Origin: Methylococcaceae bacterium
Lineage (GTDB): Bacteria; Pseudomonadota; Gammaproteobacteria; Methylococcales; Methylococcaceae
Assembly: GCA_004299145.1 (NCBI GenBank)
Contig: SCQD01000074.1
Coordinates: 1-55,017, forward strand
DNA length: 55,017 nucleotides
Direction of reading: 5' to 3'
Both the position numbers and the translations under genes were made by a program. Below the pieces are notes generated by a model that saw only the letters and a list, made by a program, of their open reading frames with translations, had not been told where the DNA came from and did no database searches. Positions 125 to 10,533 of this stretch are shown piece by piece; the first letter of the stretch is position 1; every line of letters begins with the position of its first letter.

Positions 125-1912
125 CTATCTCACCTGCACCCGCAACAACTCTTTGCCGTCCTGGTCCATCACGTGGGTGGAACAGGCCAGACAGGGATCG
201 AAGCTGTGCAGGGTGCGCAGGATTTCCAGCGGCTCGTCCGGCTTGGCGACTTTGGTATTCATCAACGCCGCTTCGAACGCGCCGATGTTGCCCTTGGGAT
301 CGCGCGGCGAGCCGTTCCAGGTGGTCGGCACGATGCACTGGTAGTTGTCGATCTTGCCGTCCTTGACCTTCACCCAGTGGCCCAGCGCGCCGCGCGGCGC
401 TTCCGTGGTGCCGACGCCCTTGGCTTCCTTGGGCCAGGTGCTGGGTTCCCACTTGGTGACGTTGGCCGTGGCCAAATCGCCGGCCTTGAGGTTTTTCACC
501 AGTTTGTCCTGGAAGTGTTTCATCTGGTGGGCGCAATACTGGGCTTCCAGCCCGCGCGCGGCGGTGCGGCCCAGGGTGGAGAACAGCGCCGTCACCGGCA
601 GGCCCAACTCGCCCAGCAGCTGATCCACCGGTTCCTTGATGGCCGGCATGCCTTTGGCGTAACCGATGATGTAGCGCGCCAGCGGTCCCACTTCCATGGC
701 GTGGCCTTTCCAGCGCGGCGCTTTGATCCAGGAATACTTGGCGCTTTCGTCCAGGTTTTCGATGTGGGTTTTCGTGCCCTTGGTTTTATGGCCCAGCATG
801 AAGCGCGGCTCGGTGACGCCGTCGTAGGGGTGCAAGCCGGCGTCCGGGTTGTCGTAGTGATACCAGGAGTGCGTGACGAATTCCTGGATTTGCGTGGGGT
901 CGCGCAAATCCACTTCGTGCACTTCGTTGAGGTTGCCGCCGATGATGGCCCCGCGCGGCAGGATCAGATTGCCGGCGGAAGTGTCGTTGGCTTTTTCCGG
1001 GATGTCGCCGTAGCTCAACACGTTGCTGGCGGATAGCCCGCCGCCGTACAGCCAGTCTTTGTAGAAAGAGGCGATGGCCTTCAAGTCGGGCAGGTAGACC
1101 TGTTCGATGAACTGAATGGTGCGGTCGATGATGGACGACACCAGATTGAGCCGTTCCATGTTGACCGCGCCGCCGGCCCCATCCAGGTTGACGGCGCAGG
1201 GCACGCCGCCCACCAGCCAGTTGGGGTGGGGGTTTTTGCCGCCGTAGATGGCGTGAATTTTCATGATGTCTTTCTGGAAATCCAACGCTTCCAGATAATG
1301 GGCCACGGCCATCAGATTGGCTTCCGGCGGCAATTTATAAGCCGGATTGCCCCAATAGCCGTTGCTGAACGGTCCCAGTTGGCCGCTTTCCACGAACTTT
1401 TTCAGGCGCGAGGCGATGTCCTGGAAATAACCGGGCGAAGAATTGGGCCAGGGCGAAATGCTCTGCGCCAAAGCCGAGGTCGCCTTGGCATCGGCCTTGA
1501 GCGCGCTGACCACGTCCACCCAGTCCAGAGCGTGCAGGTGGTAAAAATGCACCAGGTGATCCTGCGCTTGCAGCGTCAACTGCATGATGTTGCGGATGCT
1601 GTTGGCGTTCTCGGGAATCTGGATGCCCAGCGCGTCTTCCACCGCCCGCACCGAAGTGAGGGCGTGGGTGCCGGTGCAGACGCCGCAGATCCTCTCCGTG
1701 AAAGCCCAGGCGTCGCGCGGATCGCGGCCCTTGAGAATGATCTCCAGGCCGCGCCACATGGTGCCGCTGGACACCGCGTTGCGGATGATATTGTCGTCGT
1801 CGATATTGACCTCGCAGCGCAGGTGGCCTTCGATGCGGGTTACCGGGTCCACCACGATGCGCTTGCCGGCGTCGTTGAGGGTAAAACCGTTGGGGGTTTG
1901 AATGACGGTCAT
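125..1912 (-). CDS. hyaB: NiFe hydrogenase large subunit (group 1, HyaB/HupL/HoxG type)
   Basis: Catalytic subunit of a membrane-bound uptake hydrogenase, 595 residues, the usual length. The nickel site is formed by two cysteine pairs, both visible: [10 protein letters not shown] (Cys76, Cys79) near the N-terminus and DPCLACSTH (Cys574, Cys577) near the C-terminus. Fifteen residues follow His580. In this family that tail is removed by a specific protease after nickel insertion, so the encoded protein is a precursor. The gene follows the small-subunit gene on the minus strand, about 250 bases away across a cluster of palindromic repeats. The protein has no signal peptide of its own, and family members are exported by riding on the Tat signal of the small subunit. 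The symbol is by analogy and hupL or hoxG would fit equally. The family assignment is very secure. Confidence 0.97.
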
Positions 1913-1953
1913 GCTTGTACCTTAATTAGTCTTGTTTTTTTCTCGTTCAGCTC

Positions 1954-2155
1954 GTTCCCAAGCTCTGGCTTGGGAACGCTGTCCGGGAAGCTCCGGCTTC
2001 CCGTTCCCGCACTGGAAGCCGGAGCTTTCAAGGCCGGGTTCCCAACCTGGAGGTTGGGAACCAGCAGAGTACGGGACGCGGAGCGTCCCCAGCTGCATTC
2101 AAGAAGCCTTAGTTATTCCGCTTCGCGGCGGCTTTCCCACGCGGAGCGTGGGAAC
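1954..2155. repeat. Cluster of palindromic repeats between hyaA and hyaB
   Basis: A mosaic of short near-perfect palindromes fills the gap: one of the GTTCCCAAGC/GCTTGGGAAC type at 1954-1977, GGGAAGC/GCTTCCC at 1985-2002, GGTTCCCAACC/GGTTGGGAACC at 2037-2062, GGGACGC/GCGTCCC at 2073-2089, one copy of the 36-bp unit at 2100-2135, and TTCCCACGC/GCGTGGGAA at 2134-2155. All belong to families that recur elsewhere in the window (14.0, 20.3, 26.3, 35.5 and 39.5 kb). They resemble REP/BIME elements. Sitting inside a two-gene operon, they could stabilise or attenuate the transcript. Confidence 0.85.
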
Positions 2156-2166
2156 GATCATGTCTG

Positions 2167-3237
2167 CTACAGCGTTTTTTCCGGTTTTTTCAACGCCGAA
2201 GCCGCCGCGTGCGCCGCGATGGCGGCGCCCACCGCGCCGGCAGCCGCCAACCCCACCGTGTCGGCGTTGCTTTCCACGCCGAACACGTTGAGGCCGGTGA
2301 CGCGGTCGTAAAACGAGCCCTTGTCCCAGAAATTCTCTTCCGAGCAGCCAAGGCAGCCGTGACCGGACTGGATGGGGTAGGACGTGCCATCGTTCCAGCG
2401 CACGGTGGAACAGGCGTTGTAAGTGGTCGGGCCTTTGCAGCCCACTTTGTACAAGCAATAGCCTTGGCGCGCGCCGGCGTCGTCCCAGTGTTCGACGAAC
2501 TGGCCTGCGTCGAAATGGGCGCGGCGGTAACACTTGTCGTGGATGCGCTGGCCGTAGAACATTTTCGGCCGGCCCTGGGCGTCCAGTTCCGGCAGCTTGT
2601 CGAAGGTGAGCATGTAGGTGATGACGCCGGTCATCACTTCGGCGATGGGCGGACAGCCCGGCACTTTGATGATGGGCTTGTCGGTGATGACTTTGTGGAT
2701 AGGCGTGGCGCGGGTGGGATTGGGCTTGGCGGCCTGTACGCAGCCGTTCGAGGCGCAGGAGCCCCAGGCGATCACCGCCGCCGCGTCTTTGGCGGCGTAG
2801 CGCAGTTGCTCCACAAACGGCTTGCCGCCGACGATGCAGAACATGCCGTCTTCGTTGAGCGGCGGATTGCCTTCCACCGCAAGGATGTAGCGGCCTTTGT
2901 ATTTTTTGATGGTGTTTTCCAGCGCCGCCTCCGCCTGATGGCCGGCGGCGGCCATCAGCGTGTCGTCGTAGTCCAGCGACAGCATGGACAGCACCACGTC
3001 TTTGGCCAGCGGATGGGCCGAGCGGATAAAGGATTCGGAACAACAGGTGCACTCCAGGCCGTGCAGCCACAGCACCGGCGTGCGCGGCTTGGTTTCCATG
3101 GCATGGGCGATTTGCCCGGTGAAGGCAGGCCCCAGCGCCATGGCCGAGGCGGTCAGACTGCAATATTTCAGAAAACTGCGCCGGGTGATGCCCTGGCGGC
3201 GCATCACCGCATAAAACGTATCGGACGTATCGCTCAT
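2167..3237 (-). CDS. hyaA: NiFe hydrogenase small subunit, O2-tolerant type (HyaA/HupS/HoxK)
   Basis: Electron-transfer subunit of the membrane-bound hydrogenase, 356 residues from the ATG at 3237. That start has a strong GGGGGAGG site upstream, and the longer open frame before it is not needed. A twin-arginine signal (TRRSFLK, residues 18-24) is followed by a likely cleavage after Ala46. Counting from there, the mature protein has cysteines at 17, 19, 20, 115, 120 and 149. Cys19 and Cys120 are the two extra proximal-cluster cysteines that distinguish O2-tolerant enzymes with a [4Fe-3S] centre, where standard enzymes have glycine. The C-terminus carries an Ala/Gly-rich hydrophobic segment that would anchor the complex in the membrane. 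The gene is first in the operon, ahead of hyaB, and a possible sigma-54 promoter lies upstream. Confidence 0.97.
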
Positions 3238-3290
3238 CCTCCCCCCTGTTGTCGTGGTTATTCCGGCCGAACCGGTCAAGGGGCGGGACA

Positions 3291-3306
3291 AACAAAGAAC
3301 ATGCCA
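3291..3306 (-). promoter_or_regulatory. Possible sigma-54 promoter of the hydrogenase operon
   Basis: On the minus strand TGGCATG, four bases, then TTGTT resembles the -24/-12 consensus TGGCAC-N5-TTGCW with one mismatch in each half. It lies about 55 bases before the hyaA start. Uptake hydrogenase operons are often driven by sigma-54 with a HoxA/HupR activator, so position and type fit. It is a single motif found by eye. Confidence 0.35.
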
Positions 3307-3378
3307 GGCATGGCCTTGCCATTCACAAGGGATTTGGCGGAAAAAACGTGTACGGATGATGACAATGTCGCTTTCTGC

Positions 3379-3392
3379 GTCGCATATGCGAC
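3379..3392. promoter_or_regulatory. Perfect 14-bp palindrome between hyaA and degQ
   Basis: GTCGCATATGCGAC is a perfect inverted repeat about 16 bases upstream of the proposed degQ -35 box and about 140 bases upstream of the hyaA start. It could be an operator for either divergent gene. No regulator is identified. Confidence 0.3.
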
Positions 3393-3407
3393 ACAAGCGG
3401 AGCGCCC

Positions 3408-5256: not shown

Positions 5257-5302
5257 GCGGATGATCTGGCATTGTCGTTCCAGCCAATTACGGACGAAAA
5301 AA

Positions 5303-6034
5303 TCAAGGCAGGTGCTCACTCAACGGCTGGAATTCTTCCCCGGAAAAAAACCGCATGGATACTGGTGCTTGAAATACCAACCGGCATAACAGGCGAAACT
5401 GGATCGGCGCGTTTGGATTGATGCGAGCGACAGTCAAGCGCCATTCCACCTCTGCTTCCAGCAAACGGTGAAAATCAACAGTCAGATAACGTGGGCAATA
5501 CCCCACGTTAAGGTGGTCGTCGGTATGCAGGACAATGGCATAGCTATCCGCCGGGTTAGCCGGGTCGGGCACCAATCCCAACAGTTCACCTTCACTAAGG
5601 TGCCTGATTCGTTCCAATGATTCGGGGGGTACGTAACGCAAACCGTGGCTGAAGAAATACAACTCATATTCTCCCGATGCATTGGTCTCCGGTCGCGGAA
5701 AAACCTCCAGCAAATCGGTGCCGCGTGCACCGCCTGAGCGGGCCAGCAACAGTAAAGGATCATTCGGATCGGCTTCCAGCCCCAACCAGTGCAAATAGTC
5801 CTGATATTCCGGCCTGGATTTTGCCAACAGACGGTTGGCAAACAAAGGAAACAGTGCAGGGGAAACGTAGGATTTGCTCAAGTCCGTCATGCGGCCAAAC
5901 GGCACAAAGCGCGCTGATTTTTTTGCGCCATGGGTATAGTCGAAGCAATATAGGCCATTGCGGTGGCTGAGCCGTCCTACCGGCAGCCAGCTTCGTGTTT
6001 CCGGGTCTTGCCAGGCAACATATAGCGTATTCAT
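5303..6034 (-). CDS. HIRAN-domain protein with a HipA-N-like N-terminal half
   Basis: A 243-residue soluble protein. Residues about 123-205 look like a HIRAN domain, with the pattern GLVPDPANPADSYAI followed by VGYCPRYL (157-166 and 177-184 region). HIRAN is a small beta fold that in eukaryotic HLTF binds 3' DNA ends and that often stands alone in bacteria. Residues 1-110 resemble the N-terminal subdomain of HipA kinases: a VGRLSHRNG strand-turn, then FDY, PFGRM, LFPLFANRLL and ARSGG. The start overlaps the stop of the upstream kinase gene by four bases (ATGA), so the two are translationally coupled. In the HipBST toxin-antitoxin system the HipA N-terminal subdomain is likewise a separate protein (HipS) that restrains the kinase. 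By analogy this protein could be the partner or antitoxin of the kinase. That role is inference, and the HIRAN call is moderately secure. Confidence 0.7.
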   Translation of the reverse strand: MNTLYVAWQDPETRSWLPVGRLSHRNGLYCFDYTHGAKKSARFVPFGRMTDLSKSYVSPALFPLFANRLLAKSRPEYQDYLHWLGLEADPNDPLLLLARSGGARGTDLLEVFPRPETNASGEYELYFFSHGLRYVPPESLERIRHLSEGELLGLVPDPANPADSYAIVLHTDDHLNVGYCPRYLTVDFHRLLEAEVEWRLTVARINPNAPIQFRLLCRLVFQAPVSMRFFSGEEFQPLSEHLP

Positions 6035-6939
6035 GTCAGTTCTTTGGCGAGCGCCAACAAGCGATTGCGGTTTAAGTCCAAAACTTTTAATGCAAATTCA
6101 GCAGCTGTTTCGGATATTTCGTCGGTGGGGATTTGCGCAAAAATTCGTGCGCAATCGGGTAATGTAACGTTTTGCAGTTGATCAAGCCAGGTTCGCGCTG
6201 CCTGTTTGTGCAATTGCGCTGCGTGAGTAAACGCATCCAGTGTACCCAGTGGTTTTTGACACCTAGAGTTCAAGTAAAGCGCGGAACGGGCCTTACCCAC
6301 GTATTGCTCGACGGAGCGACCGCAATCTCTGGTCGTCAGGCGTTCTTTCCGGTTCGCTTCGGTTTCGTGACAACCCAAGGATGAAGCATGATCAAAAGTC
6401 GGCGCCAAATGAATCTTTCCATCTGCTGTAAGAATCAACCCCCAATTTTCGTGGTGCCTATCGCTATTACCAATCCAAGCGTCAAGCATTAGATACCCCA
6501 CAAACACATCAAAAGCGTCATTGGTTTGGACTAAGGGCTGCCAAGCTAAAGGCAAACCGACGATGGGCGATTCCATCAAGGCCGCCGCACGCATTACCGT
6601 GTGTTGATTCACGCCTCGTCGTGCGTCGCTCGGGTAATTCGTATAAACCCTACCCAGCAGTTCGTTGCCCAAAATAAGCCGCCCATGTTCCGGCACCATA
6701 CTTGGGCTAACGACGCCTCGTTGTTCTCGCCACACCGCAAAATTGTAATGAGCATGGGGCAGCGCCAACAACTGACAAAGCTCGCAGGCCACTTTTTCCG
6801 ACCAGTTTTCCCCTGTAGTTGGTCGCCCTTGTTTGAACAAGCAAGGAATATCGTCCTGCGTATACCAAAACTTGGCTTTGGTTCCTAATTGTTCCGGTAA
6901 ATCAGGGGCATCATCCGGCAATTGGACTATCGAATACAT
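6031..6939 (-). CDS. HipA-like serine/threonine kinase, split type
   Basis: A 302-residue protein with the core of a HipA-type kinase but without the usual N-terminal HipA domain. Visible motifs are a lysine in the nucleotide pocket (LFK, Lys36), a following glutamate (WSEKVA, Glu48), the catalytic loop GNSDRHHENW (Asp160, Asn165) and the metal-binding FDHASS (Asp183), so it should be an active kinase. It starts 47 bases after the typA stop on the same strand and overlaps the HIRAN gene by four bases. No HipB-type helix-turn-helix gene is next to it. Known HipA and HipT kinases phosphorylate aminoacyl-tRNA synthetases and stop translation. The target here is unknown. Could be a toxin-antitoxin, stress or phage-defence module. 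Confidence 0.8.
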   Translation of the reverse strand: MYSIVQLPDDAPDLPEQLGTKAKFWYTQDDIPCLFKQGRPTTGENWSEKVACELCQLLALPHAHYNFAVWREQRGVVSPSMVPEHGRLILGNELLGRVYTNYPSDARRGVNQHTVMRAAALMESPIVGLPLAWQPLVQTNDAFDVFVGYLMLDAWIGNSDRHHENWGLILTADGKIHLAPTFDHASSLGCHETEANRKERLTTRDCGRSVEQYVGKARSALYLNSRCQKPLGTLDAFTHAAQLHKQAARTWLDQLQNVTLPDCARIFAQIPTDEISETAAEFALKVLDLNRNRLLALAKELT

Positions 6940-6986
6940 AGACTCAAAGGCGAAGAGATTTCGCTACGCTGCATCCAGGCTACAAA

Positions 6987-9807: not shown

Positions 9808-9948
9808 GACGGGGGAGTGTACAGGGTTAGCAAAAAATAAGCCATGGCGTAGCATGCTTCGGCCGTTTGCCTTGCGCACAAAGATCATTGCTTGCCCAAC
9901 CGGCTACCGCTACCATCTTCCTTCACTTTTGTCGTGGAGGGACTATAC

Positions 9949-10533
9949 GTGAGTCACAATCACCTGTTTCGGGCTGGTGAAGCCAGTGTGCCCGGCCCGG
10001 TCGGCCAATTTACCGGGGCCATCACCGAAGTGTTGATTGGCGATGTCTCCGGTCCCGTGGGCCAGGCATTCGCCAACCTGGTGGCGCAAAACGTCGGTTA
10101 TATCCAACCGGAACCCGGCCAGGCGTTCAACTCCGTCGAGCACATGATGGGCCAGGCCAAGGGTTATAACCGCCTATTCGCGGTACGCGCCAGCAATCAA
10201 ATGGTGAGGCCCGCCACCATCGTCATCTGCAAGTCTTCCTTGCGCAACAATATCTTCGAAAAGCTCTACGGCGGCGTCGTGCAGCCCGCCGTGGCCGACG
10301 CCGTGCTGGATGCGGTGGAGGAGGATTACCTGCCCCGGCAACTGGCCGATTCGCTCTGCATCATCGCCCTGGTTTGGCTGGACCCGGCCTGTGCCGACGA
10401 GGCCAGACTGGATAAAACCGCGCTGTACCGCACCAATCGCGCAGCCGCCAAACTGGCCATACAACGCGCCATGCAGGGCGAGCCCAGCGTGGATGAACTG
10501 ATCGCAACCCGGCAAGCGGAGCAACACAACTGA
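9949..10533 (+). CDS. Formaldehyde-activating enzyme (Fae) paralogue
   Basis: Fae condenses formaldehyde with tetrahydromethanopterin in methylotrophs and methanogens. The family pattern is clear in this 194-residue protein: LIGDVSGPVGQAFAN, PATIV, FEKLYGG, a DAVEE segment and a final LAIQRAMQGEPSVDE. The start is taken as GTG 9949, nine bases after a GGAGG site. The upstream ATG at 9892 has no such site. Two features are unlike the standard enzyme of about 170 residues. About 20 extra residues follow the AFAN motif (around residues 46-68). By hand alignment the position of His17 of the Methylobacterium enzyme, proposed to act in catalysis, is Ile25. It is therefore more likely a Fae2/Fae3-like paralogue than the main enzyme. 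The next gene overlaps the stop codon by one base. Confidence 0.88.
   Translation: MSHNHLFRAGEASVPGPVGQFTGAITEVLIGDVSGPVGQAFANLVAQNVGYIQPEPGQAFNSVEHMMGQAKGYNRLFAVRASNQMVRPATIVICKSSLRNNIFEKLYGGVVQPAVADAVLDAVEEDYLPRQLADSLCIIALVWLDPACADEARLDKTALYRTNRAAAKLAIQRAMQGEPSVDELIATRQAEQHN

What the first reader, a model, noticed from the sequence alone, without database searches (positions are those of the whole stretch)
5303..6939. Kinase plus HIRAN pair: a split HipA-type system with a DNA-end-binding module and no HipB
The kinase has full catalytic motifs but no HipA N-terminal subdomain. That subdomain seems to be fused to a HIRAN domain in the coupled downstream gene. In HipBST the separate N-subdomain protein is the antitoxin. 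Here the HIRAN fusion suggests that DNA ends or stalled replication could control the kinase, a plausible phage-defence or damage-response switch. The pair sits directly behind typA and no HTH antitoxin gene is nearby.
Basis: partly seen in the sequence, partly recalled or inferred. Interest (0 to 1): 0.7.

Follow-up and report, generated by a model that had tools for sequence, protein, structure and literature searches.

The report
Kinase toxin and its likely antidote
Two overlapping genes encode a bacterial enzyme of a known growth-stopping kinase family and a partner that probably holds it in check and carries a part resembling known DNA-end binders; the pair belongs to a family already predicted in print, and its neighbours and its pattern of decay in other bacteria fit a toxin-antidote pair that travels with anti-virus defences.

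Summary
Kinase gene (6939-6031, minus strand, 302 aa) and partner (6034-5303, 243 aa) overlap by ATGA behind typA, with no Pfam HTH gene around. But this arrangement is published as hipIN (Gerdes 2021, PMC8262856), with the same DNA-end/phage-defence hypothesis, and is PADLOC candidate PDC-M03. No experiment on it was found in the searched library.

New here: (1) Decay asymmetry: in independent searches of the same genomes no intact kinase lacked an adjacent HipS-like gene, while HipN often outlives a broken or lost kinase (8 of 22 in cyanobacteria). This supports kinase = toxin, HipN = antitoxin. (2) hipIN lies behind or inside type I, IIG or III restriction operons in 6 of 20 non-cyanobacterial loci, including 4 of 6 in the window's sister clade, and on three kinds of phage. 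(3) Here it is a low-GC insert; the same-genus genome has the empty site. DNA-end sensing stays untested.

The parts
6031..6939 (-). hipI: HipA-like Ser/Thr kinase without N-subdomain 1 (302 aa), presumed toxin
   Evidence: AlphaFold2 model pLDDT 93.1; CtkA Z 28.0 over 274 residues, HipT(Lp) Z 19.4, HipA Z 18.7
6865..6885 (-). Gly-rich loop, residues 19-25 (GTKAKFW); Thr20 is Thr or Ser in 46 of 46 relatives, a possible autophosphorylation site
   Evidence: role by analogy with HipA/HipT (PMC10627512, passages)
6445..6462 (-). catalytic motif DRHHEN, residues 160-165
6391..6393 (-). Mg2+-binding Asp183
   Evidence: assignment by analogy
5303..6034 (-). hipN: HipS-like domain fused to HIRAN domain (243 aa), presumed antitoxin and possible sensor
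   Evidence: AlphaFold2 model pLDDT 90.3
5693..6034 (-). HipS-like domain, residues 1-114
   Evidence: HipS Z 11.6 and 11.1, HipA-N Z 10.6; Couple_hipA matches 28 of 60 relatives' N-halves at E 0.01
5804..5833 (-). conserved loop R68-Y77 (RLLAKSRPEY); Arg74 in 109 of 109 relatives; placed by inference where HipS carries its inhibitory Trp65 loop
   Evidence: alignment with HipA is weak
5339..5677 (-). HIRAN domain, residues 120-232
   Evidence: E 1.3e-9; lp_0118 Z 13.7; HLTF HIRAN Z 11
6031..6034 (-). ATGA stop/start overlap of the two genes, suggests translational coupling
5257..5302 (.). left junction zone of the insert (after the 115-aa membrane protein gene)
6940..6986 (.). right junction zone of the insert (47 bp to typA); no sigma-70-like site found between 5150 and 7150

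Best explanation
It is a horizontally acquired hipIN module. HipI is a HipA-family Ser/Thr kinase that, when free, stops growth by phosphorylating an essential component (target unknown; for HipA and HipT it is an aminoacyl-tRNA synthetase). HipN, translated from an overlapping frame, binds the kinase through its HipS-like domain, which stands in for HipA's N-subdomain 1, and keeps the ATP site shut. Its HIRAN domain is the regulatory input. The module most likely serves as an abortive-infection type phage defence that rides on phages, plasmids and restriction operons. Shown here: fold and domain make-up, catalytic residues, gene coupling, insertion, kinase-first decay, RM and phage linkage. 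Inferred: toxicity, neutralisation, target, trigger, defence.
For: Domain folds. HipS does neutralise HipT by direct binding at the active site in E. coli O127 and Legionella (PMC10627512 and PMC9325769, passages). Decay asymmetry: cyanobacterial sample of 292 genomes, each gene sought on its own: 14 of 14 intact kinases have an intact HipN directly downstream, 8 of 22 HipNs have a broken or no kinase; window's class, 369 genomes: 13 of 13 intact hipIN-type kinases have HipN, 2 of 15 full-length HipNs lack an intact kinase (G206 frame break, G329 none); Pseudomonadota sample, 214 genomes: 6 of 6 open kinases (window included) have HipN; of 11 HipNs, G951 has a kinase with a stop, G978 a short kinase match (146-301), G884 and G932 no kinase match and G887 lies at a contig end. 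At one fixed Nostocales site beside a PfkB-type sugar kinase gene, 12 of 21 loci have an intact kinase and 9 have various deletions, HipN intact in all 21 (HipN-first sample). HipI and HipN distances correlate, r 0.95, 0 of 2000 permutations, 70 pairs. RM linkage, co-directional: 6 of 20 non-cyanobacterial loci. Cargo of Vibrio PM2-like phages and a C. difficile phage beside the integrase and of an IMG/VR contig with tail genes. Insert: GC 50-53% against 61-62% in flanking genes, empty site in G016.
Against: No functional data. The asymmetry would also arise if HipN had a function of its own; orphan HipNs stay open and their dN/dS resembles that of paired ones (median 0.174 against 0.182 over all pairs in range; pairs lacking any kinase at one site are mixed: 0.17, 0.44, and about 0.6-0.7 at very low divergence). 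Related genomes share losses, so the events are fewer than the counts. Most cyanobacterial loci show no RM gene nearby with the queries used, and the window itself has none. The hhalign match of the HipN N-half to K-12 HipA is weak (probability 2.5%, E 0.018) and a sequence profile of it found nothing in the PDB at E 10; the claim rests on the fold and on Couple_hipA hits.
Confidence: 0.68

Rival explanations
1. A purely selfish addiction module: the pair persists on phages and plasmids by killing cells that lose it, and has no defence role. The HIRAN domain would only hold the complex on DNA or autoregulate it.
For: Found on plasmids (8 of 72,556 records) and phages (5 of 50,697 records); patchy; kinase decays once on a chromosome.
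Against: Co-directional embedding in RM operons of three types and carriage in integrase-proximal phage slots fit defence cargo better; addiction alone does not explain the RM preference.
Confidence: 0.22
2. HipN is not an antitoxin but an adaptor: HIRAN takes the kinase to DNA ends, where it phosphorylates repair or replication proteins.
For: HIRAN of HLTF binds DNA ends (PMC4666394, passage; PMC8262856); orphan HipNs are retained intact.
Against: An adaptor needs its kinase, so HipN should not outlive it so often (8 of 22); the HipS-like fold is that of a proven kinase inhibitor; some kinases of the family pair with a HipS-like gene without HIRAN (G200, G250, G492, and G301 with stops).
Confidence: 0.12
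3. The copy in this window is no longer a working sensor-switch: it keeps the kinase and HipS-like domain, but its HIRAN domain has lost DNA-end binding.
For: Ala162 where 56 of 109 relatives have Tyr, 25 His and 7 Phe (HLTF Tyr93 position); no promoter-like site found.
Against: Both frames are intact and R133, Y134, N160 and D163 are kept.
Confidence: 0.12
4. A host regulator functionally tied to typA/bipA translation control.
For: 47 bp behind typA, same strand.
Against: Of 38 genomes of the family, only the window's own has a close HipN; no other of 30 typA loci fetched shows hipI or hipN beside typA.
Confidence: 0.03

Closest known systems
hipIN (HipI kinase + HipN putative antitoxin), Gerdes et al. 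2021, PMC8262856
   Same: Gene order kinase then partner, kinase without N-subdomain 1, partner = HipS-like + HIRAN, no HTH gene; same hypothesis of DNA-end sensing and abortive infection.
   Different: No difference in kind found. Their clade XI tree was not rebuilt with their sequences.
PADLOC PDC-M03 (phage defence candidate)
   Same: Both proteins match its models over nearly full length.
   Different: A candidate label only; 'PDC-M03' gave 0 papers. Payne et al. 2024 (bioRxiv 10.1101/2024.01.29.577857) was seen only as a reference entry; that it is the source of the PDC models is recalled.
hipBST
   Same: Split HipA: separate HipS-fold antitoxin and short kinase.
   Different: hipBST has HipB (HTH) and HipS upstream of the kinase; here no HTH gene, partner downstream and fused to HIRAN.
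HipAD / DS-6 / PDC-M66 (HipA-like kinase + DUF3037 protein)
   Same: Two-gene HipA-like kinase system without HipB; experimentally anti-phage, kinase activity or gene needed, partner neutralises (PMC13092281 and PMC12548924, passages).
   Different: Partner unrelated by name: DUF3037/DUF1829, not HipS-HIRAN; the kinases were not compared here.
VapKSC / CapK-CapS
   Same: Works like: a DNA-activated kinase circuit guarding a toxin in phage defence (PMC13373217, passages).
   Different: GHKL kinase and STAS domains; the kinase is the sensor, not the toxin.
diDNase-HipA-HIRAN clusters, PMC11706625
   Same: HipA + HIRAN gene pairs, linked there to hipIN and to mobile elements (passages).
   Different: Gram-positive clusters with an added deoxydinucleotide nuclease; no such nuclease gene is recognised beside the window's pair by Pfam.

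Membership tests
hipIN | short kinase (279-321 aa for the short families) lacking N-subdomain 1 | tested here: met
   302 aa; model aligns to HipT(Lp) and to HipA from about residue 120 on
hipIN | core kinase motifs kept (Gly-rich loop, catalytic and Mg-binding motifs; activation loop not examined) | tested here: met
hipIN | kinase gene first, antitoxin gene downstream in the same operon | tested here: met
   ATGA overlap
hipIN | partner = HipS-like domain + HIRAN domain | tested here: met
hipIN | kinase falls in the HipI subclades of clade XI | not tested
   published sequences were not at hand; only PADLOC matches
hipIN | HipN neutralises HipI | not testable with these tools
   a prediction in the source paper too; decay asymmetry is indirect support
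PDC-M03 | both component models match | tested here: met
hipBST | HipB HTH gene in the operon | tested here: not met
   no HTH family in 63 open frames at 2.9-12.3 kb
hipBST | stand-alone HipS upstream of the kinase | tested here: not met
   partner downstream and fused to HIRAN
hipBA | full-length HipA with N-subdomain 1, HipB upstream | tested here: not met
DNA-end-binding HIRAN (as in HLTF) | DNA-contact residues | tested here: inconclusive
   R133, Y134, N160, D163 align with HLTF Arg71, Tyr72, Asn91, Asp94 (numbering recalled; Tyr72 and Tyr93); Tyr93 position is Ala162, Phe142 position appears to be Pro210 (alignment by eye)
abortive-infection system | phage protection through growth arrest | not testable with these tools
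   neighbourhood evidence only

The most novel reading that the evidence does not exclude
hipIN is a plug-in second strike for restriction systems: it settles directly behind or inside restriction-modification operons, and HipN's HIRAN domain reads the DNA 3' ends or single strands made when the restriction enzyme (or the phage) cuts DNA, letting go of HipI so that a cell whose restriction did not clear the phage stops growing. In the window the module has landed behind typA and would respond to ends made by other nucleases.
Probability: 0.2. Interest if true: 0.75.

Novelty: new member of a known kind. Interest (0 to 1): 0.42.

Why it matters
hipIN has been a paper prediction since 2021. The kinase-first decay turns 'putative antitoxin' into an assignment supported by comparative evidence, and the operon-level link to type I, IIG and III restriction systems suggests a testable trigger: DNA ends. 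If true, it would be a HipA kinase switched by DNA damage, joining restriction to growth arrest. The window's copy itself is an ordinary, recently acquired member.

Tried and rejected
Rejected: (a) link to typA. (b) Recent transfer from cyanobacteria: the genome-contig scan returned mostly cyanobacteria, but its query alignment was two-thirds cyanobacterial; the tree puts the window HipN as sister (98/97) to six gammaproteobacterial rows. (c) HipN paired with a new partner where the kinase is missing: upstream genes are mixed (PIN-type genes, leuC-like, ubiE-like, others; read by eye). (d) Fused HipL as a Rosetta stone: none among my loci; G142 (555 aa with HIRAN) is not a recognisable kinase fusion by eye. 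(e) Target-site duplication or terminal repeats at the insert: nothing convincing. (f) HIRAN residue lookup in the literature gave only Tyr72/Tyr93.

Weak points of the counts. The 80 loci are HipN-first; of 76 with enough upstream DNA (L061, L064, L094, L111 left out as too near a contig end), 47 have an intact kinase, 17 a broken one, 12 none; L056 and L066 were moved by hand from intact to broken; six (L056, L068, L088, L092, L099, L122) are frame breaks that could be assembly errors. The binomial p of 0.003 for 10 against 0 (gene lengths 906:729) treats genomes as independent; I judge about six lesions distinct, p about 0.03. G366 and G675 are kinase fragments without HipN and were not counted as intact; G366 lies at a contig end. 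G071 (order sample; L178) has an interrupted kinase and a HipN with a stop in the match; it is not in the tally. The 0 of 15 control regions used RM queries taken from the test loci and so favours the test side; the fairer contrast is (107 neighbour proteins match 197 PADLOC families at 1e-15, type I, IIG and III RM among the 25 shown; 112 control proteins match 74, none of these types among the 25 shown). Only 20 of the 107 were then scanned singly. Of 134 control open frames listed I used 112, to keep under the residue limit.

Full report
What is there. On the minus strand, directly behind typA (8807-6987), lies an open frame of 302 codons (6939-6031) whose stop overlaps the start of a second frame of 243 codons (6034-5303) by ATGA. 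The first matches Pfam HipA_C (E 2.4e-6, below Pfam's cut-off), the second HIRAN (E 1.3e-9) and, barely, the HipA N-terminal family (E 0.21). Both match PADLOC's phage defence candidate PDC-M03 over nearly their whole length (E 3.5e-120 and 1.9e-93). The genome has no other HIRAN match. Neighbours are housekeeping genes: a trypsin-like PDZ protease, TypA, a rhodanese, a formaldehyde-activating enzyme and an AI-2E type transporter; no HTH family is found in 63 open frames at 2.9-12.3 kb.

Structure. AlphaFold2 on alignments of window and the search for related loci sequences gave confident models (HipN pLDDT 90.3 from 58 rows, HipI 93.1 from 46 rows). HipN residues 1-114 match HipS of Legionella (Z 11.6, rmsd 2.1, 99 residues), HipS of E. 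coli (Z 11.1) and the HipA N-domain (Z 10.6); residues 120-232 match lp_0118 (Z 13.7) and the HLTF HIRAN domain (Z about 11). HipI matches the kinase CtkA best (Z 28.0, 274 residues), then HipT (Z 19.4) and HipA (Z 18.7). In sequence, 28 of 60 HipN N-halves match Couple_hipA at E 0.01; hhalign to K-12 HipA is colinear but weak, and a profile of the N-half found no PDB sequence. Kinase residues K36, D160 and N165 are invariant in 46 sequences, D183 is in 45, and the Gly-rich loop has Thr or Ser at position 20 in all 46. In HipN, Arg74 is invariant in 109 of 109 and Tyr77 is in 99. I infer that this loop takes the place of the HipS loop with Trp65, which is needed for HipT neutralisation (PMC10627512, passages); superposition could not be run.

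HIRAN residues. By eye on the HMM alignment, window R133, Y134, N160 and D163 correspond to HLTF Arg71, Tyr72, Asn91 and Asp94; the stacking Tyr93 is Ala162 here but Tyr in 56, His in 25 and Phe in 7 of 109 relatives; the duplex-specific Phe142 appears to be Pro (102 of 109). Gerdes et al. had noted the missing Phe and suggested ssDNA binding. So DNA-end binding is possible for the family and less sure for this copy.

It is known. Gerdes et al. 2021 (PMC8262856; abstract, sections on clade XI, HipN, HipL and HIRAN read) named the arrangement hipIN and proposed that HIRAN recognises phage DNA ends and frees the kinase. PMC11706625 (passages) found HIRAN-HipA pairs beside diDNase genes. Searches with HipN, hipIN, HipL, HipJ, HipS and HIRAN, HipA plus HIRAN, PDC-M03, and HipA with defence terms listed no experimental study of hipIN; subscription papers and preprints are not in that library.

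Acquisition. hipI and hipN have 50.1% and 53.4% GC against 61.2% (typA) and 62.2% (protease). In the only same-genus genome (G016) the protease, the small membrane protein and typA are contiguous, with 110 bp between the last two and no hipIN. Of 38 genomes of the family only the window's own has a close HipN; with the PADLOC profile, distant full-length relatives appear in three others, G026, G029 and G030. No promoter-like site was found near the pair (0 against a shuffle mean of 1.5). Among 68 paired loci with a called upstream gene, it is co-directional in 52, while the downstream gene is so in 34 of 63 (related loci not removed; p 1.4e-5 and 0.61).

Decay asymmetry. Each gene was sought by its own profile in the same genomes. 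Cyanobacterial sample of 292 genomes: 14 near full-length kinases, all 14 with full-length HipN directly downstream; 22 full-length HipNs, 8 without an intact kinase (five with no kinase match, three with fragments); one kinase fragment (G675) without HipN. Window's class, 369 genomes: 13 of 13 open hipIN-type kinases have HipN; of 15 full-length HipNs, G206 has a kinase split in two frames and G329 none. Four further kinase matches (G200, G250, G492, and G301 with stops) sit beside a HipS-like gene without HIRAN, like the published hipJS. Pseudomonadota sample, 214 genomes: 6 of 6 open kinases, window included, have HipN; of the 11 HipNs, one (G951) has a kinase with a stop, G978 a short kinase match, G884 and G932 no kinase match (a divergent kinase could be missed at this threshold) and G887 lies at a contig end. 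In the HipN-first set of 80 loci, 29 of 76 evaluable lack an intact kinase, and at a single conserved Nostocales site the kinase is intact in 12 of 21 loci and broken in various ways in 9. Losing the kinase while keeping HipN is thus tolerated; losing HipN while keeping the kinase was not seen. That is what a toxin and its antitoxin should show. A function of HipN of its own is not excluded: orphan HipNs stay open, with dN/dS near that of paired ones.

Company. On the Rhodococcus plasmid the order is R-S-hipI-hipN-M; in G382 it is M-S-hipI-hipN-R; in G381 hipIN follows a type I R gene, in G060 a two-frame type IIG gene, in G109 a type III mod-res pair, in G115 type I genes ending in M, with an integrase-like gene next (the integrase by eye). 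That is 6 of 20 non-cyanobacterial loci with an intact kinase, all co-directional. G381, G060, G109 and G115 are four of the six loci in the sister clade of the window's HipN (support 98/97), so close relatives sit behind three types of RM system. In G206 a DpdE-like gene lies beside the pair. hipIN also lies beside the integrase in PM2-like Vibrio phages and a Clostridioides phage, among tail genes on an IMG/VR contig, and beside DUF499/DUF1156/helicase genes on a Nostoc plasmid. Most cyanobacterial loci show no RM gene with these queries.

Mechanism. Best supported: HipI is the toxin, HipN the antitoxin acting through its HipS-like half; HIRAN is the regulatory input. The trigger is inference. 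DNA ends or single strands would fit the HIRAN fold, the RM company and a precedent in which a kinase is activated by ssDNA and a related operon guards a toxin in phage defence (PMC13373217, passages). HipA-kinase systems with another partner do protect against phages (PMC13092281, PMC12548924, passages). The window's copy is an ordinary member, acquired by horizontal transfer.

Noticed in passing
L165:7029-11418: hipIN lies directly behind an intact recG-like gene and is followed by a 188-codon duplicate of that gene's 3' end, as if it had inserted with duplication of the gene end.
   Followed up: no
L041:5628-10254 and L170:1961-8588: hipIN is embedded inside type I restriction operons in two different gene orders (S-hipI-hipN-M and S-hipI-hipN-R).
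   Followed up: partly
L035, L043 (Vibrio phages of Vinavirales): Two tailless PM2-like phage genomes of about 14 kb were read that carry hipIN next to the integrase; four such records match HipN.
   Followed up: partly
L112, L172, L116/L182, L060/L085, L067/L104: Solitary HipN genes without any kinase remnant, some at sites shared by two genomes; possibly retained as antidotes against incoming hipIN.
   Followed up: partly
G200, G250, G492: Kinases of this family beside a HipS-like gene without HIRAN, resembling hipJS; the HipS-like part is the constant partner.
   Followed up: no
window 9892-10530: Formaldehyde-activating enzyme (Fae) gene, which marks the host as a methylotroph.
   Followed up: no
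window 128-3396: Frames that look like the large and small subunits of a [NiFe] hydrogenase (read by eye) at the window's left end.
   Followed up: no
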